Assembly (NCBI RefSeq): GCF_000975055.1
Contig: NZ_BBRB01000002.1
Coordinates: forward strand, 62,001 to 126,000
DNA from: Demequina sediminicola
GTDB taxonomy: Bacteria; Actinomycetota; Actinomycetes; Actinomycetales; Demequinaceae
Direction of reading: 5' to 3'
Length of the DNA: 64,000 nucleotides
Shown: positions 4,718 to 27,049 of the stretch, one piece after another
Numbering within the stretch: position 1 is the first letter of the stretch
Layout: every line of letters begins with the position of its first letter
The notes under the pieces: generated by a model
Databases searched by the model: none
What the model was told of the DNA's origin: nothing
What the model saw: only the letters and a program-made list of their open reading frames with translations
Position numbers and translations under genes: made by a program

Positions 4718-4909
4718 TCACTTCGGCCTCGACCAGAGGTCGGCATTTTGGGGCGAATGTCTGATTTGTGAACGGATTTGGCCAACGAGCGTTGGATAAC
4801 TTCGTGTGCACTCTCCCGTAAAATGGCTGTTAATCCCTCAGCCTTGCATTGCCGCAGAATTCCTGTGGCGACTTTGTGCTGTGCCCAAAACCTGCATCTG
4901 GAGTTCCCC

Positions 4910-6853
4910 ATGTCTTCCCCGAGTACCCGAGCGGGCCGCCTCGCCTCCGTATCGACCGTCACTGTGGTCCTCGCGGCAACTATTGCCGCGACGGCTCAAG
5001 CTCAATTGCCGGCGGGCTACGACCTCCCCGGCGTGGACGGCATCATCCCCGGCGGAAACCCTGCAGGCGGCAACTGGGGTGCTTGTGAGCCTGGTACTGA
5101 CCCCGCGACGGACTGCGCCGACAATACTTATGGGTACCCCACCACGGGAACGGCGTTCTTGGGTGTCGACAATGCGGCGAATGTCATTGTCGGAGGTGAC
5201 TTCACGGCGCAGTCGACACAAAGCAGTGGTGGAGGCGCCGAGACCGAAGGCCTCCTCGTGGTCTATGGAAATGCCGCATTCAACAAGGCGTACAACGTCG
5301 GAGGCGTCGGCGTCGGCTCTCAAGTCACGCCCCAAAACTCGGCTGACATGCTCCTTGTTGAAGGTTCCGTCACTGTGCCAGAAGGCGTGACCGCGGAAGT
5401 GGGTTTCACCTTGGGAGAGAACCGGTACGGAAACATCGGTGTCGTCGGCGACCAGAACTTCAAGAACCCCACCTACGGAGGTTCACAGCCGCATGGCCGC
5501 TTGGGCAATATCGACGCGTTCTGGAACGACAACACCGCAGAGCCAAATACCTACAACACTCTGCTGAGCACGGCACAGACGCAGACTTCGCTGGACCAGT
5601 ACCGCGACCTCGTTGGCGCCAACGGACTGATGAACGTCTACTCCACACAGTGCTACAGCGAGCTTGCCACCACGAATGCTGCACTTGCCAAGAATGGTGC
5701 TGGTCAGTCCCTGAGCGTGGCCCACGGAACCATCGATCTGCAGGGCTCCTCACTGACTTTGACGGGAGACAACTCTTCGGACATCCAGGTGTTCTCGCTC
5801 GATGCAGCAGACGCCGCACTGAGCGCCACCAGCTGGACGTTCCGTGACCTGCCGGCAGATGCCGCGGTCCTGATCAACATCACCGGCACCAACGTGACAC
5901 TCAACGCCGGCTCGTTCTTCATTGATGACACGTTTGACCACACGCGCGCATTCAATGAACTCACCACGCGCATTCTGTGGAACATTCCTGACGCGTCCAC
6001 TCTGCTCATCGACGGCAACGGGCAGTACCCCGGCTCCTGGCTCATGGGCCAAGAGGCATCTACCGCAATCCTCGCCGCACCCGGCCTCAACGGCCGCTTC
6101 TATACCCCGGGCAGCGTTGAGCACGGCAACGCGAGCGCGGCGAGCGGCACAGGATCGGAGTTTCACGCATACCCCTTCACCGCAGGCCTGGGCTGTGTCC
6201 AGGACGCGAACGTGGATCCGAGCACGAGCCCCTCGGCGAGTCCTTCGGTGAGTCCGTCCACTTCGCCGAGCACGAGTCCTTCAGCGAGCCCGTCCGCGTC
6301 CCCCAGCGTGAGCCCGTCGGCTAGTCCTTCAGCTAGCCCGTCCGCGTCCCCCAGCGTGAGCCCGTCGACGTCGCCGAGCACCAGTCCTTCAGCTAGCCCG
6401 TCTGCCTCGCCCAGCGTGAGCCCGTCGACGTCGCCGAGCACCAGTCCTTCAGCGAGCCCGTCTGCGTCTCCAAGCGTGAGCCCGTCGGCTAGTCCGTCTG
6501 CGTCTCCAAGCGTGAGCCCGTCGGCTAGTCCGTCTGCCTCGCCCAGTGTGAGCCCTTCAGCTGACCCGTCCGCTTCTCCAAGCGCGAGCCCCACCGCCAA
6601 TCCGACTGCCGACCCTGCGGACGACCCCACGCCGGTGGCCAGCAATAGTCCTTCTGCAGATCCATCGTCCTCAGCGAGCGTCGACACTCAGGACAACGCC
6701 GCCGGTGCGACGGATAGCGGTGATGCGACTGGCAGTGCCGGGCAGCTGCCTACGACCGGTATTGACTCCACTCAGACCTCGGTGCTCGTGGGCTTCGCGG
6801 CCCTGCTGATGGTCTTGGGTGGAATGCTGATCGCGGCGCGCCGCCAACGCTAA
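4910..6853 (+). CDS. Choice-of-anchor-A domain surface protein with Ser-Pro repeat stalk and LPTTG anchor
   Basis: 647 residues from the ATG at 4910 (GGAG six bases upstream; the signal peptide begins there). A signal peptide (about 1-30, ending TAQA) is followed by a choice-of-anchor-A type beta-rich domain (about 60-430: FLGVDNAANVIVGGDFT, GLLVVYGNAAFN, ILWNIPDA), a long low-complexity SPSASPSVSPSTSPST stalk (about 436-565), then QLPTTG, a hydrophobic helix and the basic tail RRQR. The last three elements form a class-A-type sortase signal, so the protein should be covalently attached to peptidoglycan. No sortase gene is present in the window. A role in adhesion is plausible but inferred. 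Confidence 0.87.
   Translation: MSSPSTRAGRLASVSTVTVVLAATIAATAQAQLPAGYDLPGVDGIIPGGNPAGGNWGACEPGTDPATDCADNTYGYPTTGTAFLGVDNAANVIVGGDFTAQSTQSSGGGAETEGLLVVYGNAAFNKAYNVGGVGVGSQVTPQNSADMLLVEGSVTVPEGVTAEVGFTLGENRYGNIGVVGDQNFKNPTYGGSQPHGRLGNIDAFWNDNTAEPNTYNTLLSTAQTQTSLDQYRDLVGANGLMNVYSTQCYSELATTNAALAKNGAGQSLSVAHGTIDLQGSSLTLTGDNSSDIQVFSLDAADAALSATSWTFRDLPADAAVLINITGTNVTLNAGSFFIDDTFDHTRAFNELTTRILWNIPDASTLLIDGNGQYPGSWLMGQEASTAILAAPGLNGRFYTPGSVEHGNASAASGTGSEFHAYPFTAGLGCVQDANVDPSTSPSASPSVSPSTSPSTSPSASPSASPSVSPSASPSASPSASPSVSPSTSPSTSPSASPSASPSVSPSTSPSTSPSASPSASPSVSPSASPSASPSVSPSASPSASPSVSPSADPSASPSASPTANPTADPADDPTPVASNSPSADPSSSASVDTQDNAAGATDSGDATGSAGQLPTTGIDSTQTSVLVGFAALLMVLGGMLIAARRQR
6217..6600 (+). repeat. 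Degenerate tandem repeat encoding Ser-Pro stalk
   Basis: Built from 6-, 18- and 60-base units reading S-P-S/T. The 60-base blocks 6361-6420 and 6421-6480 differ at only four positions by eye, which makes this a likely variable-number repeat that could change stalk length by slippage while staying in frame. Confidence 0.85.
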
Positions 6854-6944: not shown

Positions 6945-8711
6945 TTACGGGGTAACAGTCACCGTTCCCATTGACGTCCACAGTTGCAGGTCCACCCAGT
7001 CAAACTGCTCGGCGTCACCCGTGTACCCGGGGCTCACATCAACAGCATCGTCTGCGGGGCGTGGCTCAATGAGTTCAGGCATCTGCTCGGCGCTGTCGTA
7101 GGCGATGATGCCGCCGCCGCTCGACACGTTGAGGGTGGTCAATGCCAGGAGCGTGTAACTGCCGGGTTCCACCGCAGCGGGCTCGTTCGTAGTGTCGCAG
7201 CGCCGGACATCACGCCAGAGCGAGGTCGTCTCAGTGCTCGCGCCGGAGGCGAAGACCTGCTGCTCGGGTGTTGGCCAAATCAACGGTTCGATGGCCTCGT
7301 CGCCGCTACCGGCCGATGCTTCTGCCGAGCCTGGGAGCGTGAGGAGTTCAGGGTATGCCTCAGCGACCACGACTCCGTCGCGTGCGAGGTAGAGGCTCGG
7401 CACGGAGGAATCCCAATAGTTGTAGATGTCGTAGTCGGACACGTTCGAGACTGTGGAGTTCACCTCGGGGTTTCCGTCCACGACATACCCGTAGCTCAAT
7501 GCGATGGAACGCGGGTGGTCGACCTCAAGTTCTAGGAGGTCCATGCTTGAACTCGATGCGGGGAATGCGGCAGTGGGTTCAACACCCCAGGTGCATCCGT
7601 AGGTGAGGTATTCGCTGGTGTTGTAGTCATGCATGAGCCACCGGTGTGACCCTGCGACCATGTCCCAGGTGGTGTCGGTGCGCGATGCTTCGAACAGTTG
7701 CCGTGCAATCTCCGGCGTGAGTGCGTTGTCGGGTAGCTCGGTGGGTTGAGGAAGAGGTTCTGGTTCGATCGGCGTCAGGTATTCGCCGAACGGGTCGTCG
7801 ATGGGGTCTCCGTCGATGGCGAGTGTGGCGGGTTCGGTGGAGATGCGGAAGATCTCCGGAAGCTGGCTCGGCTCGGGTAACGGTACGGCGGTGGCGATTC
7901 CAGAGGTGGCAGCGTCGGACGATGCGTTGTCAGGGGCGGCGGCCGTGTCGGCGGAGGGCTCTGTGTCGGCGGAGGGCTCTGGGGATGGAGCGCTTTCGCC
8001 AGCGTCCTCCTCATCGGCAGGGTAGGCAAGGGTCTTGGCGAGGTGGACCTCATACTTTCCTGCGGGGAGTGGCTCGCCGTCCCAGCAGTTGACGGCGTCA
8101 ATCCCGATGGGCTGCTCCAGGGTAGACATGTCGCCCTCCGGGTCGAGTCGTTCTCCAGTGACATCAGGGCGCAGGAGGGGTTCATCGGCAGGCCCGTACA
8201 TGATGGGCGAGTCCTGAATGAGGCGTCCGACGACGATTCCGTCCCACACGATCACGTAGTCGGTAGCGGTGAGCACGTCGACGGGACGCAGCGCGGTGAC
8301 GGTTTCGGTGACCTGGTGGTCGTCGGTGAAGTCGCCGATGCTGTAGTCGACGCCCGATGTGTCTCCGTACGTCCAGCCGCTGTCGTCTGGTGAGAAGTCG
8401 CTTCCGCACATCCACTGCTCGGCGATCATGGCATCGGCCCTGTCGCCGGATTCTTCAGCTCCACCGGACTGGTCCATGAGGGCTTCGGTGGTGGCCTCGG
8501 AGGCCAGCATGCTGTCCGAGTCGCCAGCGGGGGACGCCCCCCACACTCCCAAACCGATGACCACTACAGCTCCAGCACCGACGATGCTGTTGGCGGCGGT
8601 GTGGATACCCCGGTTGCGCTTGACACGCGCTGCCACGCGGGAGGTGTCGACGGATGCGTCGTCAATGGGTGCGCGGTCTGCTGCACCTCGCATGGAATCG
8701 GACAGCCTCAT
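6945..8711 (-). CDS. Membrane-anchored two-lobed extracytoplasmic protein, partner of the adjacent sigma factor
   Basis: 588 residues, no recognised family. A short cytoplasmic segment (1-37), one transmembrane helix near 40-60 (SIVGAGAVVVIGLGVW), an acidic Pro/Ala/Ser-rich linker (about 245-290, with SAPSPEPSADTEPSAD) and two extracellular lobes. Each lobe has two Cys, the second in a motif of the form C-x(n)-G-x-Y: NCWDGEPLPAGKYEVHL in lobe 1 and RCDTTNEPAAVEPGSYTLL in lobe 2. The start overlaps the sigma factor stop (ATGA), so the two genes are coupled. The position is that of an anti-sigma factor, but no zinc-binding anti-sigma motif (HxxxCxxC) is present. The protein at 25529-27049 has the same layout. 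Function unknown; envelope sensor or sigma regulator is an inference. Confidence 0.75.
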   Translation of the reverse strand: MRLSDSMRGAADRAPIDDASVDTSRVAARVKRNRGIHTAANSIVGAGAVVVIGLGVWGASPAGDSDSMLASEATTEALMDQSGGAEESGDRADAMIAEQWMCGSDFSPDDSGWTYGDTSGVDYSIGDFTDDHQVTETVTALRPVDVLTATDYVIVWDGIVVGRLIQDSPIMYGPADEPLLRPDVTGERLDPEGDMSTLEQPIGIDAVNCWDGEPLPAGKYEVHLAKTLAYPADEEDAGESAPSPEPSADTEPSADTAAAPDNASSDAATSGIATAVPLPEPSQLPEIFRISTEPATLAIDGDPIDDPFGEYLTPIEPEPLPQPTELPDNALTPEIARQLFEASRTDTTWDMVAGSHRWLMHDYNTSEYLTYGCTWGVEPTAAFPASSSSMDLLELEVDHPRSIALSYGYVVDGNPEVNSTVSNVSDYDIYNYWDSSVPSLYLARDGVVVAEAYPELLTLPGSAEASAGSGDEAIEPLIWPTPEQQVFASGASTETTSLWRDVRRCDTTNEPAAVEPGSYTLLALTTLNVSSGGGIIAYDSAEQMPELIEPRPADDAVDVSPGYTGDAEQFDWVDLQLWTSMGTVTVTP

Positions 8712-9259
8712 GACAGCTTCCTTTCTGTGACGTCGGCGTGATCGGCCGTGGCGGCGGCGGCGTCGGCGTCGTCTAACGGGCCGAGCGCCAATTGCAGTTG
8801 GTCAAGACCGTCGCTGACATAGCGTTTGACGGTCCCCTCGGCGATGCCTAGGTGGCGGGCAATCTGGCCGATGGTGAGGTCATCGAAGTAGCGGAGCACC
8901 ACACAGGCGCGGGGCCGGGGTGGCAAGGTGGCGAGGGCCTCGTGGATGTCGGAGCCTGCCTCGACTTGCCCGAACCGGTCCGGTGCGACGTCGGCTGGGG
9001 TGAAGAGGTGTTGGACGCGTTGCCAGCGTTGGCGGCGTCGGTAGCCGTCGACAAAGGCCGATGTGATGGCACGGCGCACGTAGCCTTCCGCTTTTGCTGC
9101 GGTGAGCCCTTTGCGTTCGCGGCTGAAGGTTCGGACCAGGGCATCTTGAACAAGGTCTTGCGCTTGGACGGCGTCTCCGCACACGAGGTAGGCGTAGGAG
9201 AGCAGTGCGCGCTCGCGGTCGCGCACGAGCTGTTCCATGGTGTCCCGCCAGTGGGCCAT
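8708..9259 (-). CDS. SigE-family ECF-like RNA polymerase sigma factor
   Basis: 183 residues. Region 2 spans roughly residues 10-85 (ALLSYAYLVCGDAVQAQDLVQ) and region 4 roughly 110-165 (LPPRPRACVVLRYFDDLTI followed by an HTH, IARHLGIAEGTVKRYV). The match is to the actinobacterial SigE-like subgroup. The ATG at 9259 was chosen for the GGAGG five bases upstream; an in-frame start at 9361 would add an unconserved His-rich leader. It is translationally coupled to the membrane protein gene that follows and diverges from hppA. Region 4 and the conserved length support an active sigma factor; regulation by the coupled membrane protein is inferred. Confidence 0.87.
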   Translation of the reverse strand: MAHWRDTMEQLVRDRERALLSYAYLVCGDAVQAQDLVQDALVRTFSRERKGLTAAKAEGYVRRAITSAFVDGYRRRQRWQRVQHLFTPADVAPDRFGQVEAGSDIHEALATLPPRPRACVVLRYFDDLTIGQIARHLGIAEGTVKRYVSDGLDQLQLALGPLDDADAAAATADHADVTERKLS

Positions 9260-9437
9260 CTGGTCCTCCGATTGCTGTGAACGGTGGTGTGCGTGGTGCC
9301 TTTCATAGTGTCGACGTACAACGTGTGGAAAACGTTGGGTTGCCCTCGCCGCGACTCCCATACTCCCCTAGAGTGACGAATAACCAGGAGGGACACACAG
9401 CGCCGTGTGGCCCCGTGAGCATCGTCAAGGAGGACGT

Positions 9438-21995: not shown

Positions 21996-24710
21996 ATGGC
22001 CCAGAAGCTCGTCATTGTCGAGTCGCCCACCAAGGCAGGCACGATCGGCGGCTACCTCGGGGACGACTTTGAGGTCTTGTCCTCCGTGGGTCACATCCGC
22101 GACATCCCGGCCCCCTCGGATATGCCTGCGGAAATGAAGAAGGGCCCTTACGGCAAGTACGGAGTCGACGTCGACAGCGATTTTGACCCGTACTACCAAA
22201 TCTCGCCTCGCGCCAAGAAGACAGTCGCGGAAATCAAGCGCCGTCTCAAGGAAGCCGACGAGCTCTACCTCGCAACAGATGAAGACCGCGAGGGAGAGGC
22301 CATTGCGTGGCACCTGCTTGAGGTCCTCAAGCCCAAGGTTCCCGTGAAGCGGCTCGCCTTCCACGAGATCACGCGGGAAGGCATCGAGCGTGCTCTCGCT
22401 GCCCCGCGTGAAGTCGATATGGAGATGGTGGAGGCGCAGGAGACGCGCCGCATCCTTGATCGCCTGTACGGCTGGGATATGTCCGATGTGATGCGGCGCA
22501 AGGTGGGGCCGGGATCCTCGGCGGGCCGTGTGCAGTCGGTGGCTTTGCGTTTGGTGGTGGATCGCGAGCGCGAGCGGATGGCGTTCCAGGCCGCCGAGTA
22601 TTGGGACCTCACCGCGCGCTTTGCGGCCACGCAGGGGGCCGATGCCGGTGTGGGCTTTGTCTCGCGGCTTTCGAAGGTCGATGGCAAGCGTGTGGCGTCG
22701 GGTAAGGACTTTGACGACCGCGGTGTGCTGACGAACTCGAGTGCTCACCACGTGACTGCTGCTGAGGCTGCCGCGCTGGTCTCGGGCCTGGCCCACTCAG
22801 ATTTCTCTGTGCTCGATGTGACGTCGAAGCCTTACAAGAAGCGTCCTGCCGCGCCGTTCATTACGTCGTCGCTGATTCAGGAGTCTTCGCGCAAGTTGGG
22901 CTTGGGTGCTCGCCAGGCGATGTCCGTGGCGCAGGGTCTGTATCAGCAGGGTTTCATTACGTATATGCGTTCTGACTCGCCCGCGTTGTCGAGTGAGGCA
23001 ACCAAGGCTGCACGGTCGCAGGCCATGGAACTTTTCGGTTCGGACGCTGTGCCGAGCTCTCCCCGGGTATACGCCTCCGGCGACGCCAATGCTCAGGAAG
23101 CGCACGAGGCCATCCGTCCTGCCGGAGACCGCTTCCGCACTCCAGAGTCCCTGCGTAGTGAACTGCGCGGTGACGAGTTCCGTATGTACGAGATGATCTG
23201 GAAGCGCACGCTCGCGTCACAAATGGCCGATGCCGTGGGCACCACCTCGACCATCACTGTGGGTGCGAAGTCCTCGGCCGGTCACGCGGTCGAGTTCGCG
23301 AAGTCCGGCACGATTTTGACGTCGCCTGGCTTCCGCGCGCTTTACATCGAGTCGAAGGAAAAGGCCCGGTACGAGGACGAGGACGGTAAGCAGCCCGCCG
23401 ATGGCGATGCACGCCTCCCGCAGGTGAAGGCCGGGGACGCGATGGATGCGTCCGAGATGGATGCACTGACGCACACCACAAACCCGCCGCCACGCTTCAC
23501 TCAGGGCTCCATGATTAAGGAACTCGAGGACCGCAAGCTTGGCCGTCCGTCGACGTATGCCTCGACCGTGGACGTCATCATCGACCGTGGCTATGTGCGG
23601 CTCGACAAAAAGGTCTTGGTCCCGACCTGGGTGGCATTCAACATCATCGAACTGTTGGAGCAGCACTTCCCGACACTGGTGGACTATGGCTTTACGGCTG
23701 AGATGGAAGCGGGCCTTGACCGCATCGCGGCGGGTGAGCGTGCCATGACTGACTGGCTGCGCGAGTTCTACTTTGGCGGCGAGGGCGCTGCCCAGGAGGG
23801 CTTGCGTGAATTGCTCGACGACTTAGGCGACATCAACCCCCGTTCGGTCAACACATTCGAGATCGGCGACGGCATCACCGCACACAACGGCCGCTACGGT
23901 CCGTTCGTGGAGCGCATGGTGGACGACGAGAAGCAGACCGCGTCGATTCCCGAGGACCTCCCTCCCGCTGACCTCACTGTGGCCAAGGCCCTCGAATTGT
24001 TCGAGAACCAGGGCGGTGACGAGCGTGAACTCGGCACCCACCCGGACAGCGGTTACCCCATCGTGGCCAAGGCCGGGCGGTTCGGGCCCTATGTGACCGA
24101 GCAACTGCCCGAGGATGCCAAGGGCAAGCCCAAGACTGCCTCGCTGTTCAAGTCGATGGACCTCGCCACCGTGACACTGGAGGACGCTCTGCGCCTGATG
24201 TCGTTGCCGCGTGTCGTCGGGGAAGACCCCGAGTCTGGCGAGCCCATCACCGCACAAAACGGGCGCTACGGTCCCTACCTGAAGAAGGGCACTGACTCGC
24301 GGACCATCGAGTCCGAGGAGCAGCTCCTGTCGATGACGCTTGACGAGGCATTGGCCATCTATGCCCAGCCCAAGCGTGGACGCGGCCGCACGGCCAAGCC
24401 GCCGCTAAAGGAGTTCGGCGCAGACCCCGTCTCGGGTAAGCCCGTAGTCGTCAAGGATGGGCGTTTTGGTCCATACGTGACTGACGGTGAGGTGAACGCG
24501 ACCATCCCTAAGTCCGACAACGTCGAAGCCTTGGGTGAGGCTCGCGCCTTTGAACTGCTCGCTGACAAGCGTGCCAAGGGACCGGTCAAGAAGAAGGCCA
24601 CAGCCAAGAAGGCGCCAGCGAAAAAGAAGCCGGCTGCGAAGAAGCCTGCGGCCAAGAAACCTGCCGCGAAGAAGGCCGCACCCAAGAAGGCGGACCCCAA
24701 AGAGAAGTAG
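21996..24710 (+). CDS. topA: DNA topoisomerase I (type IA) with lysine-rich tail
   Basis: 904 residues. The Toprim domain begins at residue 5 (IVESPTKAGTIGGYLG) and includes ATDEDREGEAIAWHL; the catalytic tyrosine is Y323 in FITYMRSDSPALS. The C-terminal region carries several topoisomerase repeat segments (NGRYGPFVE, AGRFGPYVTE, NGRYGPYLKK, DGRFGPYVTD) instead of zinc fingers, followed by about 40 residues dominated by KKKATAKKAPAKK-type lysine repeats, as in other actinobacterial TopA proteins where the tail assists processivity. It relaxes negative supercoils. AAGGTAGGA precedes the ATG. It runs alone; the sigma-like gene begins 67 bases later. Confidence 0.97.
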   Translation: MAQKLVIVESPTKAGTIGGYLGDDFEVLSSVGHIRDIPAPSDMPAEMKKGPYGKYGVDVDSDFDPYYQISPRAKKTVAEIKRRLKEADELYLATDEDREGEAIAWHLLEVLKPKVPVKRLAFHEITREGIERALAAPREVDMEMVEAQETRRILDRLYGWDMSDVMRRKVGPGSSAGRVQSVALRLVVDRERERMAFQAAEYWDLTARFAATQGADAGVGFVSRLSKVDGKRVASGKDFDDRGVLTNSSAHHVTAAEAAALVSGLAHSDFSVLDVTSKPYKKRPAAPFITSSLIQESSRKLGLGARQAMSVAQGLYQQGFITYMRSDSPALSSEATKAARSQAMELFGSDAVPSSPRVYASGDANAQEAHEAIRPAGDRFRTPESLRSELRGDEFRMYEMIWKRTLASQMADAVGTTSTITVGAKSSAGHAVEFAKSGTILTSPGFRALYIESKEKARYEDEDGKQPADGDARLPQVKAGDAMDASEMDALTHTTNPPPRFTQGSMIKELEDRKLGRPSTYASTVDVIIDRGYVRLDKKVLVPTWVAFNIIELLEQHFPTLVDYGFTAEMEAGLDRIAAGERAMTDWLREFYFGGEGAAQEGLRELLDDLGDINPRSVNTFEIGDGITAHNGRYGPFVERMVDDEKQTASIPEDLPPADLTVAKALELFENQGGDERELGTHPDSGYPIVAKAGRFGPYVTEQLPEDAKGKPKTASLFKSMDLATVTLEDALRLMSLPRVVGEDPESGEPITAQNGRYGPYLKKGTDSRTIESEEQLLSMTLDEALAIYAQPKRGRGRTAKPPLKEFGADPVSGKPVVVKDGRFGPYVTDGEVNATIPKSDNVEALGEARAFELLADKRAKGPVKKKATAKKAPAKKKPAAKKPAAKKPAAKKAAPKKADPKEK

Positions 24711-24776: not shown

Positions 24777-25532
24777 GTGGCGGAACGGCAGCAGTTGATC
24801 GAAGACCTGCTTGAGCAGGCAGGTGAGAGCCTGGGCACGTATGGCTGGATGCTCACCGGCTCTGAGGACGGCGCCACTGAACTTGTCCGTTCCGGCATTG
24901 TTCAGGCCTTGGGGCGGGCCAGGCGCCCGGGCACTGTCGACGATGCCGAGAAATCTGTCAAAAAGCAGATGCAGAGGCTTGCTGCCCGCGGCGTGGGTGA
25001 CCGTAGCAACAATGGGCACGAGGCCACTGCAGGCCCAGAGAACTCGATACCGGCCAGCAACTCTGCCACCTCGAGCCCTCCCTCGCCACCGTCAGCGACT
25101 GACAGCCACAGTGACTTCGACCCCGCGCTGTGGGCGCCGCCTGAACCAGGTCAGACTGACATCGCTTTCGACGCGGATCCTGGCCGCACACGTTCCGGTG
25201 AGGTTCCGGAGACAGCCCGGCAGACCCCTCCCGTGGCGCCTCGTCACGCACGCCCCGACCCAGCACCACCTCAGCCCCACGAGGAGGCCTCGTCGGCGCC
25301 TGAAGGCAACGTGGCATCGGCCCTCTCCGGACTGGAGCCACCCATCAGGGCCGCGACGGTCATGCGGCACGTCGACGGGTTGAGCGTGGCGAAGATCGCC
25401 CGCCGACTGCGCATCACTCAAGGCCGGGTGGAGGCCTACACGTCCTACGGCCACGGTGCCCTCGCCCCTGCTCTAGGGCTGCCAGCGCCGCAGGCCGAAT
25501 ATGTCGAGATCATTCCCGGAGGCAAGGCGTGA
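24777..25532 (+). CDS. Sigma-factor-like protein with long inserted Pro-rich linker
   Basis: 251 residues from GTG 24777 (GGGGAG six bases upstream). Residues 1-75 resemble a degenerate sigma region 2 helix pair (LGTYGWMLTGSEDGATELV), and 190-235 form a sigma region 4-like HTH (ALSGLEPPIRAATVMRHVDG, then AKIARRLRITQGRVEAYT). Between them about 110 residues are Ser/Pro/Asp/Glu-rich and predicted disordered. SigE-family proteins lack this insert, so it may be a sigma-like regulator rather than a canonical sigma factor. The stop overlaps the GTG of the membrane protein gene. Promoter recognition has not been shown; weak region 2 conservation limits confidence. Confidence 0.65.
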   Translation: MAERQQLIEDLLEQAGESLGTYGWMLTGSEDGATELVRSGIVQALGRARRPGTVDDAEKSVKKQMQRLAARGVGDRSNNGHEATAGPENSIPASNSATSSPPSPPSATDSHSDFDPALWAPPEPGQTDIAFDADPGRTRSGEVPETARQTPPVAPRHARPDPAPPQPHEEASSAPEGNVASALSGLEPPIRAATVMRHVDGLSVAKIARRLRITQGRVEAYTSYGHGALAPALGLPAPQAEYVEIIPGGKA

Positions 25533-27049
25533 CAGGCCTCGGTGATGAACTAGAGAGCACCGCCCGGAGCCATGGCGCTGACGTCGCGCGGCACCTCACG
25601 GGCACTGATGCTGCTGTGGCGATGTCGGCTGACGCGGCGGCGGTGCGGAAGCGTCGGACCCGCGTCGGAATAGGAACGGGGGCGGCGCTGACAGGCGCCG
25701 TCGCCCTGGCGGCTTGGTTGGTTGCTCCCGAACCGCCACTGCCTGCCATGCAAGTCGACGATGCGATCGTGGCTGATGTGCCACCTATCCCAACTGACTT
25801 TCAGGGAATGACGTGTGACGTCGTAGAGAACCAGGCCTATGTTCCATGGGCGGAGCCCGGTGTGACCATTGCCTCAGATGATGTGAGAGACCTCGGGATC
25901 ACCGTCAACGCGAGCCTGTGGGACTTCAATCAGGGAGCAGCCGCCGCGTCCGAATCCGAAGTACCGGACCGCGACTGGACTTCAGTGGAGGCGGGTACCG
26001 ACCACACCATCAACGGGCTTCCCAACCCCTTCGAGCCCGGAAGGTCGCTCAGCGTCATCTTCGACATCTCCTGGGAAGGTGAAGCCCACTTCGAGGTCGA
26101 TGCCGCGGCGTTCGCGGTAGCCCAGAATCGCGTCGTGACCAGACTCGGTTCCGTTGATGCGCGCTACGTCGGGGTGACGGAAGTTGAGGAGTTCCAGCAA
26201 GCGGCAACGCCGGCTGAAGACGGCCGCACACTTGTGCAGAGGATCGCGCTCATCGACGCCAGCAATTGCCTCTCAGGTGCCGGGTCCGGGGAACTCATGG
26301 GCTACCTAGGGGCCACGGAGATTCACACGGTGGTGCAGGTCAAGAACGAAGACGGTGAGCCGCTCGTGACATACGTTGATTCCAACGGGATTGACGGCAC
26401 TACTCTCGAATGGGTTGCCCCGAGCCCCACGGGGATGACCTTCACTTTCCCTCCGGTGGAACCCGACGAAGTGGAGCAACTTCGTGCGGAGCGTGCGCAG
26501 CTGACGCCGGTACCGTCGTCCGCCGCGATCATTCGAGACGCTGCTGCCAAAGACGGAGCCCCCTTGCAGGAGCTCGGCGAGGGTTTTGCATCGTATGAGA
26601 TGTGCCCATCCACCGACCTGCGAGTACTTGAGGAGCCGGTCATTCCTTCCGGCCAAGACCCTGACGCGGAACCACGCAGAACTCTTCCGCCATTGCCTGA
26701 CTCGCTGTCGCTCGCGGCAGTTCAAGAAGGCGGAACGGTCCAGATCAGTGAGGGATCGCCCGAGCCTGGCCTCAGCCTGTGGGCGTGGCTGTACTTCGTT
26801 GACGAGGCAGGGGACACCGCTGGCGTCACACCCGCAATCTTCAGTGGGGTGGGTTACGGAGGCGGCTGGGAGTTCCAAGCATGGGAGGGCTGTAGTACGA
26901 CGGCGAACCTTGACGCCGGTCAGGAGTACACCGTCGTGGGTGAGGCGCAATCGTTTGCTCCGTGGTGGACCGATCCGGAGCTTCCAGGGGTTGACTTCTT
27001 TGACCTCGTGAGCCGCGCGGTCGTAGGGGACACTACGCTCGAGGAGTAA
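25529..27049 (+). CDS. Membrane-anchored two-lobed extracytoplasmic protein, second copy of the sigma-partner type
   Basis: 506 residues. N-terminal cytoplasmic segment (1-45), transmembrane helix (about 50-66, GAALTGAVALAAWLV), then a large extracellular part with two lobes. Each lobe has a Cys pair: TCDVVENQAYVPW and NCLSGAGSG in the first; MCPSTDLRVLEEP and GCSTTANLDAGQEYTVVG in the second. The same C-x(n)-G-x-Y signature and overall layout are found in the 588-residue protein at 6945-8711, although sequence identity is low by eye. It is coupled to the sigma-like gene by GTGA. No anti-sigma zinc motif, no enzymatic residues recognised. A sensor or sigma-sequestering role is inferred from gene order. 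Confidence 0.7.
   Translation: MTGLGDELESTARSHGADVARHLTGTDAAVAMSADAAAVRKRRTRVGIGTGAALTGAVALAAWLVAPEPPLPAMQVDDAIVADVPPIPTDFQGMTCDVVENQAYVPWAEPGVTIASDDVRDLGITVNASLWDFNQGAAAASESEVPDRDWTSVEAGTDHTINGLPNPFEPGRSLSVIFDISWEGEAHFEVDAAAFAVAQNRVVTRLGSVDARYVGVTEVEEFQQAATPAEDGRTLVQRIALIDASNCLSGAGSGELMGYLGATEIHTVVQVKNEDGEPLVTYVDSNGIDGTTLEWVAPSPTGMTFTFPPVEPDEVEQLRAERAQLTPVPSSAAIIRDAAAKDGAPLQELGEGFASYEMCPSTDLRVLEEPVIPSGQDPDAEPRRTLPPLPDSLSLAAVQEGGTVQISEGSPEPGLSLWAWLYFVDEAGDTAGVTPAIFSGVGYGGGWEFQAWEGCSTTANLDAGQEYTVVGEAQSFAPWWTDPELPGVDFFDLVSRAVVGDTTLEE

What the first reader, a model, noticed from the sequence alone, without database searches (positions are those of the whole stretch)
6945..9259. Two coupled sigma-plus-two-lobed-membrane-protein modules in one window (also 24777-27049)
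Both modules have a sigma-like gene overlapping (ATGA/GTGA) a single-pass membrane protein with two extracellular lobes, each with a Cys pair and a C-x(n)-G-x-Y motif. Neither partner has an anti-sigma zinc motif. This resembles an undescribed class of membrane partner that might sense the envelope and control the sigma factor.
Basis: partly seen in the sequence, partly recalled or inferred. Interest (0 to 1): 0.65.

Follow-up and report, generated by a model that had tools for sequence, protein, structure and literature searches.

The report
Sigma factors paired with disulfide-lobed membrane proteins
Two gene pairs in a Demequina bacterium each couple a transcription sigma factor to a membrane protein with paired outside lobes: one looks like a working, self-activating surface sensor, while in the other the sigma factor has lost the part that reads promoters, a broken form whose counterparts in related species seem to be kept by selection.

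Summary
The anatomy is real. Module 1 (6945-9259, - strand) is a SigE-like ECF sigma gene overlapping (ATGA) a one-pass membrane protein with two Ig-like, Cys-paired lobes. The partner was found in 37 of 37 same-genus (Demequina) genomes searched. The sigma gene is adjacent in 30 of 30 loci read, and an ECF-type promoter, consensus CCAACGTTT-N13-CGTC, lies upstream in 30 of 30. A lobe profile from non-Demequina proteins finds both lobes. Lobe genes adjoin a SigE-type sigma in 26 of 30 loci, 17 of 20 outside the own family and the seed genomes. No Pfam or NCBIfam model matches either partner.

Module 2 (24777-27049) belongs to a variable array behind topA. Its sigma kept region 4 but lost regions 2.3-2.4, one of 17 such; 2 of 17 have an ECF promoter against 27 of 35 intact. 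dN/dS is 0.28-0.67 in five pairs from other species. G-x-Y is absent from its lobes, and their homology to module 1 is not shown.

Best reading: membrane-anchored, non-zinc, anti-sigma-like regulators with a minimal tail. Binding was not tested.

The parts
9313..9338 (-). ECF-type promoter of module 1: CCAACGTTT (9338-9330), 13 nt, CGTC (9316-9313)
   Evidence: AAC...CGT present in 30 of 30 Demequina module-1 loci; printed sequences show the same 13-nt spacing; 28 of 30 fit a tight form that also asks for A four letters after CGTC. Zero-mismatch pattern occurs once in the own genome; reversed-pattern control 0. Same CCAACGTTT, 13 nt, CGTC in the S. coelicolor sigmaE target sco2334 printed in PMC6767563 (passages).
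8708..9259 (-). Sigma 1: intact SigE-like ECF sigma factor (regions 2 and 4)
   Evidence: TIGR02983 127 bits (cut-off 141.55), Pfam Sigma70_r2 and Sigma70_r4/r4_2 over cut-off; PDB relatives are ECF or other sigma factors, best SigE 3.6e-14
6945..8711 (-). Partner 1: one-pass membrane protein, 588 aa, overlapping sigma 1 by ATGA
8607..8711 (-). Cytoplasmic N-terminal tail of partner 1 (aa 1-35), predicted helices 2-12 and 23-44, putative sigma-binding segment
   Evidence: Column conservation 0.69 against 0.45 (lobe 1) and 0.58 (lobe 2); AF2 helices, low confidence
8538..8606 (-). Transmembrane segment of partner 1 (about aa 36-58)
   Evidence: Hydropathy; best 19-residue window starts at 37-56 in all 84 partners
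7776..8423 (-). Lobe 1 of partner 1 (aa 97-312; C102, C209), Ig-like beta sandwich whose last strands follow a disordered loop
   Evidence: AF2 blocks mostly 91-97 pLDDT; VIA best Z 9.0, rmsd 3.0, 109 aligned, to Ig-like folds; lobe profile 3.0e-7
6948..7721 (-). Lobe 2 of partner 1 (aa 331-588; C373, C505)
   Evidence: AF2; lobe profile 8.2e-6; hhalign to lobe 1
24777..25532 (+). Sigma-like 2: degenerate, keeps remnants of regions 2.1-2.2 (by eye) and region 4, long Pro-rich linker, lost regions 2.3-2.4
   Evidence: profile bits: regions 2.1-2.2 1.0, 2.3-2.4 -3.5, region 4 36.8
25529..27049 (+). Partner 2: one-pass membrane protein, 506 aa, overlapping sigma-like 2 by GTGA
25529..25663 (+). 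Cytoplasmic tail of partner 2 (about aa 1-45; predicted helices 2-22 and 26 onward into the membrane)
   Evidence: AF2, low confidence
25751..26443 (+). Lobe 1 of partner 2 (aa 75-305; C96, C247)
   Evidence: AF2; VIA best Z 6.2, rmsd 3.4, 126 aligned
26510..27046 (+). Lobe 2 of partner 2 (aa 328-506; C359, C455)
   Evidence: AF2; the A1-A3 hhalign match aligns it in register with lobe 2 of partner 1, probability 47%, E 2e-4
21996..24710 (+). topA, the fixed left border of the variable sigma-partner array
   Evidence: Found in 40 of 41 genomes of the genus at E 1e-50

Best explanation
Module 1 is a self-contained envelope-signalling unit. Sigma 1 reads a SigE-type promoter (AAC...CGTC) directly upstream of its own operon and so amplifies itself (sigma family and promoter conservation shown; transcription inferred). 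Partner 1 is made from the same operon, sits in the membrane with a roughly 35-45-residue two-helix tail inside and two disulfide-stapled Ig-like lobes outside, and probably holds sigma 1 inactive through that tail, in the manner of short class II anti-sigma domains such as CnrY, until the lobes bind or lose something in the wall and the tail is released or cut (all inferred). Module 2 is a diverged unit of a fast-evolving array behind topA. Its sigma has lost the -10-reading part and has no self-activating ECF promoter, so it is probably no longer a working sigma; degenerate sigmas of this kind are kept as proteins in the pairs measured, most likely as binding partners of the membrane protein or as competitors of intact sigmas.
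For: Sigma 1 identity. Adjacency in 30 of 30 loci with gap -8 to +2. Promoter 30 of 30 (shuffled mean 1.6). A strict form of it gives 28 matches in 27 of 41 genomes of the genus, 26 of the 28 at this gene (reversed control: 1). It matches a published sigmaE target (PMC6767563 passages). Conserved tail. Sigma distances track tail distances more than ectodomain distances: 0.70 versus 0.64 over 70 pairs, partial 0.54; partial 0.44 in the array group, 0.61 in module 1 with four downstream units. Lobe-sigma co-occurrence 26 of 30, 17 of 20 outside own family and seed genomes. SigE-family sigma genes elsewhere are followed by the same layout in 25 of 26 and 21 of 28 loci, against 10 of 78 control pairs taken from the window and array loci. 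Some have cell-wall-type ectodomains (YceG/MltG 7.5e-51; Germane plus Gmad2). CnrY-type domains are two helices, the first on sigma4 and the second on sigma2 (PMC7406223 passages). Degenerate sigmas: region 2.3-2.4 score at most 2.5 bits in 17 against at least 9.3 in 36 intact; promoter 2 of 17 against 27 of 35, p 1.2e-5; dN/dS 0.28-0.67.
Against: No binding, expression or phenotype data exist. The tail matches no anti-sigma model in Pfam or NCBIfam in the proteins scanned and no solved chain (best E 0.26, an unrelated stretch). Tail-sigma correlation can come from shared descent, and mixing module 1 with four other units inflates the 0.61. The disulfides are inferred from conserved Cys only; no distances were measured. 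The partner could as well be a co-activator or tether. For degenerate sigmas, dN/dS was measured in pairs of other species only (seven genes; three of the five pairs share three genes), and one intact pair is as high (0.66); the window copy was not measured. One of the 17 (L093, 115 aa) is a short ORF with region-2-like sequence just upstream of it, so it may be a broken intact gene instead.
Confidence: 0.62

Rival explanations
1. The partner is not an anti-sigma but an envelope effector (for example a wall-binding adhesin or scaffold) merely co-transcribed with a SigE-type sigma that is controlled at the level of its own transcription, as S. coelicolor SigE is by CseABC.
For: SigE-family members can be regulated without an anti-sigma (ECF39; PMC8999054 passages). 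Ectodomains are very diverse, some enzyme-like. One lobe protein looks like a lipoprotein without a tail (L171).
Against: The tail is one of the best conserved segments and tracks sigma beyond the ectodomain. Overlap or close spacing of the two genes is kept across the order sample. No two-component genes are coupled to the module among the ORFs listed around it (read by eye).
Confidence: 0.2
2. Degenerate sigmas are simply decaying copies on the way to loss; the array is a graveyard of duplicated units.
For: Loss of region 2.3-2.4 and of the promoter go together. dN/dS is higher (0.28-0.67) than in three of four intact pairs (0.08, 0.12, 0.24; the fourth 0.66). Sigma count varies, 0-4 per locus.
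Against: dN/dS stays below 1 in 5 of 5 pairs; the ORFs and their partner genes are open in the loci read; 17 genes in 16 of 39 loci; region 4 is partly kept (median 23.0 bits).
Confidence: 0.35
3. Sigma-like 2 is the sigma4 half of a split sigma, with a separate region-2 protein elsewhere, like B. subtilis SigO-RsoA (recalled; only a search listing seen).
For: Region 4 is present, region 2.3-2.4 absent.
Against: It keeps remnants of regions 2.1-2.2 (by eye), and no region-2-only gene was seen among the ORFs next to it; no genome-wide search for one was made.
Confidence: 0.05
4. The two modules share only a common layout; lobes of module 2 are an independent Ig-like ectodomain, so there is no single two-lobed class.
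For: BLASTP E 0.30; iterated lobe profile never reaches partner 2; hhalign of its two lobes finds only 8 columns, probability 0.8%; lobe-by-lobe comparison with module 1 is weak (0.4% and 15.5%).
Against: Whole-partner hhalign in register, probability 47%, E 2e-4; same order of Cys pairs and beta-rich lobes; both Ig-like by VIA.
Confidence: 0.4

Closest known systems
CnrH-CnrY (class II anti-sigma domain), Cupriavidus metallidurans
   Same: Very short cytoplasmic domain of two helices acting on an ECF sigma (class II features from passages of PMC7406223 and PMC8103513); membrane anchoring and operon layout of CnrY recalled
   Different: No sequence match shown; ectodomain of tandem Ig-like Cys lobes; SigE-like sigma; binding untested
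BldN-RsbN (class III anti-sigma domain), Streptomyces
   Same: Actinobacterial, membrane-anchored, sequesters the sigma (PMC8103513 passages)
   Different: Different sigma; no sequence link found; the ectodomain was not compared
S. coelicolor SigE with CseABC (ECF39)
   Same: Same sigma family (TIGR02983 named after it, recalled); promoter letters AAC...CGTC, with sco2334 nearly identical
   Different: SigE is controlled through a two-component system and a lipoprotein (PMC8999054 passages); here an overlapping one-pass partner takes that place
Zinc class I anti-sigma factors (RsrA, ChrR type)
   Same: Regulator gene beside an ECF sigma gene
   Different: No Hx3Cx2C in 84 of 84 partners and no anti-sigma Pfam model in the proteins scanned

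Membership tests
ECF sigma factor, SigE family (TIGR02983): sigma 1 | Match to the family model over its cut-off | tested here: not met
   127 bits against 141.55; it is the best NCBIfam hit, so 'SigE-like', a relative under the curated line
ECF sigma factor (general): sigma 1 | Regions 2 and 4 present, no region 3 | tested here: met
   Pfam r2 34.3 bits, r4_2 58.2 bits, both over cut-off; no region 3 model among the hits; sigma70-ECF 70 bits against 42.9
ECF sigma factor: sigma-like 2 | Region 2 including 2.3-2.4 for -10 recognition | tested here: not met
   No Pfam region 2 hit; profile score -3.5 bits against at least 9.3 in 36 intact sigmas
Zinc anti-sigma factor (class I with ZAS) | Hx3Cx2C motif | tested here: not met
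   0 of 84 partners
Class II anti-sigma domain (CnrY type) | Anti-sigma domain short, about 50 residues or less | tested here: met
   TM window starts at residue 37-56 in 84 partners, median 44
Class II anti-sigma domain (CnrY type) | Domain made of two helices | tested here: inconclusive
   AF2 gives helices 2-12 and 23-44, and 2-22 and 26-65, but at low confidence
Class II anti-sigma domain (CnrY type) | Sequence relation to CnrY | tested here: inconclusive
   Profile search of solved chains found no relative; short tails are beyond its reach
Class II anti-sigma domain (CnrY type) | Binds the sigma and blocks RNA polymerase | not testable with these tools
   No complex prediction or bench work available
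BsuPI or other named Ig-like domain family | Match to the family profile or fold | tested here: inconclusive
   No Pfam hit at E 1 for partners 1 and 2; VIA to BsuPI 3isy Z 7.8, rmsd 3.3, 105 aligned, among other Ig-like folds of similar Z

The most novel reading that the evidence does not exclude
The degenerate sigmas are a selected kind of their own: sigma mimics that kept the surfaces touching the membrane partner (and perhaps core polymerase or -35 DNA) but gave up promoter opening, so that they tune the intact sigmas of the same array by competing for tails or polymerase. With interchangeable lobes outside and a variable number of units behind topA, the array would be a fast-evolving set of surface-sensing switches with built-in decoys.
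Probability: 0.25. Interest if true: 0.78.

Novelty: new variant of a known kind. Interest (0 to 1): 0.58.

Why it matters
SigE-family sigma factors are common in Actinomycetota (matches at E 1e-35 in 26 of 80 genomes of the phylum sample), and how most are controlled is not known to me. The evidence here points to a shared, zinc-free, minimal-tail membrane partner for them, and it defines an ectodomain (tandem Cys-paired Ig-like lobes) that Pfam does not model in the proteins scanned. It makes a direct test possible: does a roughly 40-residue tail silence its sigma? The degenerate sigmas add a rarer question: whether bacteria keep broken sigma factors as regulators.

Tried and rejected
Direct homology of the two partners by BLASTP and of all lobes by iterated profile search: fails for module 2; one array protein (L068) drifted in at 2e-10 with a misplaced range and is not used. 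Foldseek against PDB for partner 1: no match at E <= 0.001 (best 0.012). VIA gave generic Ig-like folds only, so no named fold family is claimed and absence from those lists is not used as evidence.

Rows set aside: the module-1 profile hit 11 genomes outside the own family at E 0.01. Six loci were kept by the tool's list; four (L169-L172) showed lobes and became seeds, two (L173, L174) are sigma-coupled but showed no lobe and were dropped. The same profile hits an own-genome protein at C7 at 5.9e-6; reading the locus I judged it, from its sequence and from memory, to be a cyclophilin-like protein with an Arg-rich stretch before its membrane segment. For this reason tail-plus-TM profile hits near 1e-5, including that to the L002 partner, are not used. 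L117-L119 (same genus) were left out of the 26-locus order count, and L121, counted there, has four hydrophobic segments. The seven phylum misses are two contig ends (L188, L190), two loci of one 9.2-Mb genome (L176, L200) and three where the script picked a short overlapping ORF (L186, L187, L191).

Regulon of sigma 1: five sites with up to one mismatch in the own genome (reversed control 0). One is the sigma gene itself, one lies upstream of a predicted lipoprotein on contig C11, three fall inside ORFs. The second strict site outside module 1 is on G060 contig C14 and was not read. So only autoregulation is argued. Sigma-70 promoter scan of module 2: none found. Literature: the searches listed no paper whose title or abstract start describes this partner type; the 2021 ECF reclassification paper is not held, so it may already list the group. 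The claim that the type is undescribed rests only on those searches. Two-Cys array partners with about 35-residue Cys spacing (L069, L076, L077, L079, L082, L088, L089, L091) are probably another ectodomain and are not counted as lobes in the argument, though they are inside the 77 pairs.
Full report
What is in the window. Module 1 reads 9259 to 6945 on the - strand: a 183-residue SigE-like ECF sigma and a 588-residue one-pass membrane protein overlapping by ATGA. Module 2 reads 24777 to 27049 on the + strand, directly behind topA: a 251-residue sigma-like protein and a 506-residue one-pass protein overlapping by GTGA. Neither partner matches Pfam or NCBIfam at E 1.

Module 1 across the genus. 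The partner was found in all 37 same-genus genomes searched (own plus 36; some as fragments) and in none of 22 genomes of other genera at E 0.001. In the 30 of those 37 that were read as loci, the sigma gene precedes it with a gap of -8 to +2 nt in 30 of 30. Twenty-eight of 30 partners have four Cys beyond residue 70; one has five and one, a shortened ORF, has two. The tail is well conserved (0.69) against lobe 1 (0.45), the stalk (0.37) and lobe 2 (0.58); only the last strand is higher (0.71).

The promoter. Upstream of the sigma gene a consensus CCAACGTTT, 13 nt, CGTC is kept: 30 of 30 loci carry AAC-N16..21-CGT within 110 nt, against a shuffled mean of 1.6. In the own genome the 13 fixed letters occur without mismatch once, here. 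A stricter form gives 28 matches in 27 of 41 genomes of the genus, 26 at module 1 and two elsewhere, with one match for the reversed pattern. The S. coelicolor sigmaE target sco2334 in PMC6767563 (passages read) has the same letters and spacing. This argues for a working, self-activating sigma; transcription was not measured.

The lobes. AlphaFold2 models both lobes of partner 1 as beta-rich, many blocks above pLDDT 90; the best solved matches, to lobe 1, are generic Ig-like folds (VIA Z 9.0, rmsd 3.0, 109 aligned, several rows tied). A profile from 15 lobes of eight non-Demequina proteins and one fragment, with no Demequina sequence in it, finds lobe 1 at 3.0e-7 and lobe 2 at 8.2e-6 in the window protein. 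The choice of seeds was not fully independent: L169-L172 had come from the Demequina profile, L120 and L122 from the sigma search. Four rounds give 76 domains in 40 of 93 proteins, and none in five shuffled copies of each. The tool's search with 14 such lobes finds the domain in 50 of 297 genomes of the order at E 1e-5, 20 of them of the own family; four same-genus genomes that carry module 1 were missed, so it is not exhaustive. Of the 30 loci returned (one per genome, best first), 26 have a lobe gene directly next to a SigE-type sigma. Without the six genomes that gave the seeds and the four of the own family it is 17 of 20. The four exceptions: L237, L244 and L247 show lobe genes and no sigma within the stretch (the neighbouring lobe gene of the L237 genome does adjoin a sigma, L171), and L254 shows a sigma but no lobe call by my profile. 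Lobe number varies from one to four.

The layout is wider than the lobe. SigE-family sigmas (TIGR02983) of other genera are followed by a protein whose first TM lies at residue 25-85 in 25 of 26 loci of the order sample and 21 of 28 of the phylum sample (misses listed under Tried and rejected). Control: 10 of 78 adjacent gene pairs without a sigma, taken from the window and the array loci, not from the sampled genomes. Ectodomains differ: YceG/MltG in two same-genus loci, Germane plus Gmad2 in two others, Cys lobes in L120 and L122.

Module 2 and the array. Within at most 10 kb behind topA, genomes of the genus carry 0-4 detected sigma genes: at least one in 28 of 38 relatives read (some stretches are only 3-7 kb), and in the window. 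Partners in this group have two, four or six Cys beyond residue 70 (19, 26 and 2 of 49, two with three, with L002, which is not in the array, set aside). Of 52 array sigmas, 35 are intact (profile score 100 bits or more) and 17 degenerate. The degenerate ones keep part of region 4 (median 23.0 bits; intact 69.7) but not 2.3-2.4 (maximum 2.5 bits; intact minimum 9.3; the intact group holds L002 as a 36th). In 12 of 16 loci with a degenerate sigma an intact one lies in the same stretch; the window, L056, L078 and L084 are the exceptions. In G036 an intact sigma with its partner directly precedes the degenerate one (L057), which fits tandem duplication followed by decay. Two of 17 have the ECF-type promoter, also after correcting start codons, against 27 of 35 intact (Fisher p 1.2e-5). 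dN/dS in five degenerate pairs (seven genes) is 0.28-0.67; four intact pairs give 0.08, 0.12, 0.24 and 0.66, the last at 52% identity and perhaps not orthologous. In those pairs the degenerate sigmas are thus under weaker, but still purifying, selection; the window copy itself was not measured.

Are the two modules one class? By layout yes; by ectodomain sequence not shown. BLASTP finds nothing, partner 2's own lobes do not match each other, single-lobe comparisons with module 1 are weak, and the lobe profile does not reach partner 2. Profile comparison of the whole partners aligns the second lobes in register at probability 47%, E 2e-4, and both models are Ig-like, partner 2 more weakly (Z 6.2).

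How it most likely works. Sigma distances follow tail distances beyond what the ectodomain explains (partial 0.54 over 70 pairs; 0.44 array group; 0.61 module 1 with four downstream units), which fits, but does not prove, a contact. The tail's size and two predicted helices resemble class II anti-sigma domains (CnrY: helix 1 on sigma4, helix 2 on sigma2; PMC7406223 passages). I therefore commit to: the partner sequesters sigma through the tail, the lobes sense the envelope, release starts self-amplification. Shown: genes, overlaps, promoter conservation, lobe family, co-occurrence, region loss. Inferred: binding, inhibition, signal, disulfides, release step, role of degenerate sigmas.

Novelty. 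ECF sigma plus membrane regulator is a known kind. New here, as far as the searches listed under Tried and rejected reach, are the unmodelled tandem lobe domain, its tie to SigE-type sigmas over four families, and a recurring set of degenerate sigmas without their own ECF promoter. The main ECF reclassification paper could not be read.

Noticed in passing
L117:458-1432 (-), L118:464-1444 (-): In two other genomes of the genus a SigE-family sigma overlaps a protein whose ectodomain is a YceG/MltG-like transglycosylase domain (Pfam 7.5e-51, 4.7e-35); its membrane segment is under my hydropathy threshold but visible by eye. A possible sigma coupled to a wall enzyme.
   Followed up: partly
L171:2020-3144 (+): A two-lobed protein whose start looks like a lipoprotein signal (read by eye) instead of tail and TM, directly behind a sigma-coupled two-lobed protein: perhaps a secreted or anchored decoy of the sensor.
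   Followed up: no
L248 (G314), L239 (G137): Sigma-coupled proteins with four tandem lobes, with further lobe genes in the same cluster.
   Followed up: no
L208 (own genome C11:582191): The only other strict copy of the module-1 promoter in the own genome lies just upstream of a predicted lipoprotein gene: candidate second target of sigma 1.
   Followed up: partly
window 4778-6853 (+): A surface protein with a long SPS repeat tract and a C-terminal LPTTG-TM-Arg sorting end (read by eye), next to module 1.
   Followed up: no
L023, L031, L034, L036 downstream of module 1: In four genomes a second intact SigE-type sigma with its own 246-255-residue partner follows module 1; its Cys lie 13-15 residues apart in pairs in three of the four, and none of the four sigmas has the AAC...CGT promoter.
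   Followed up: no
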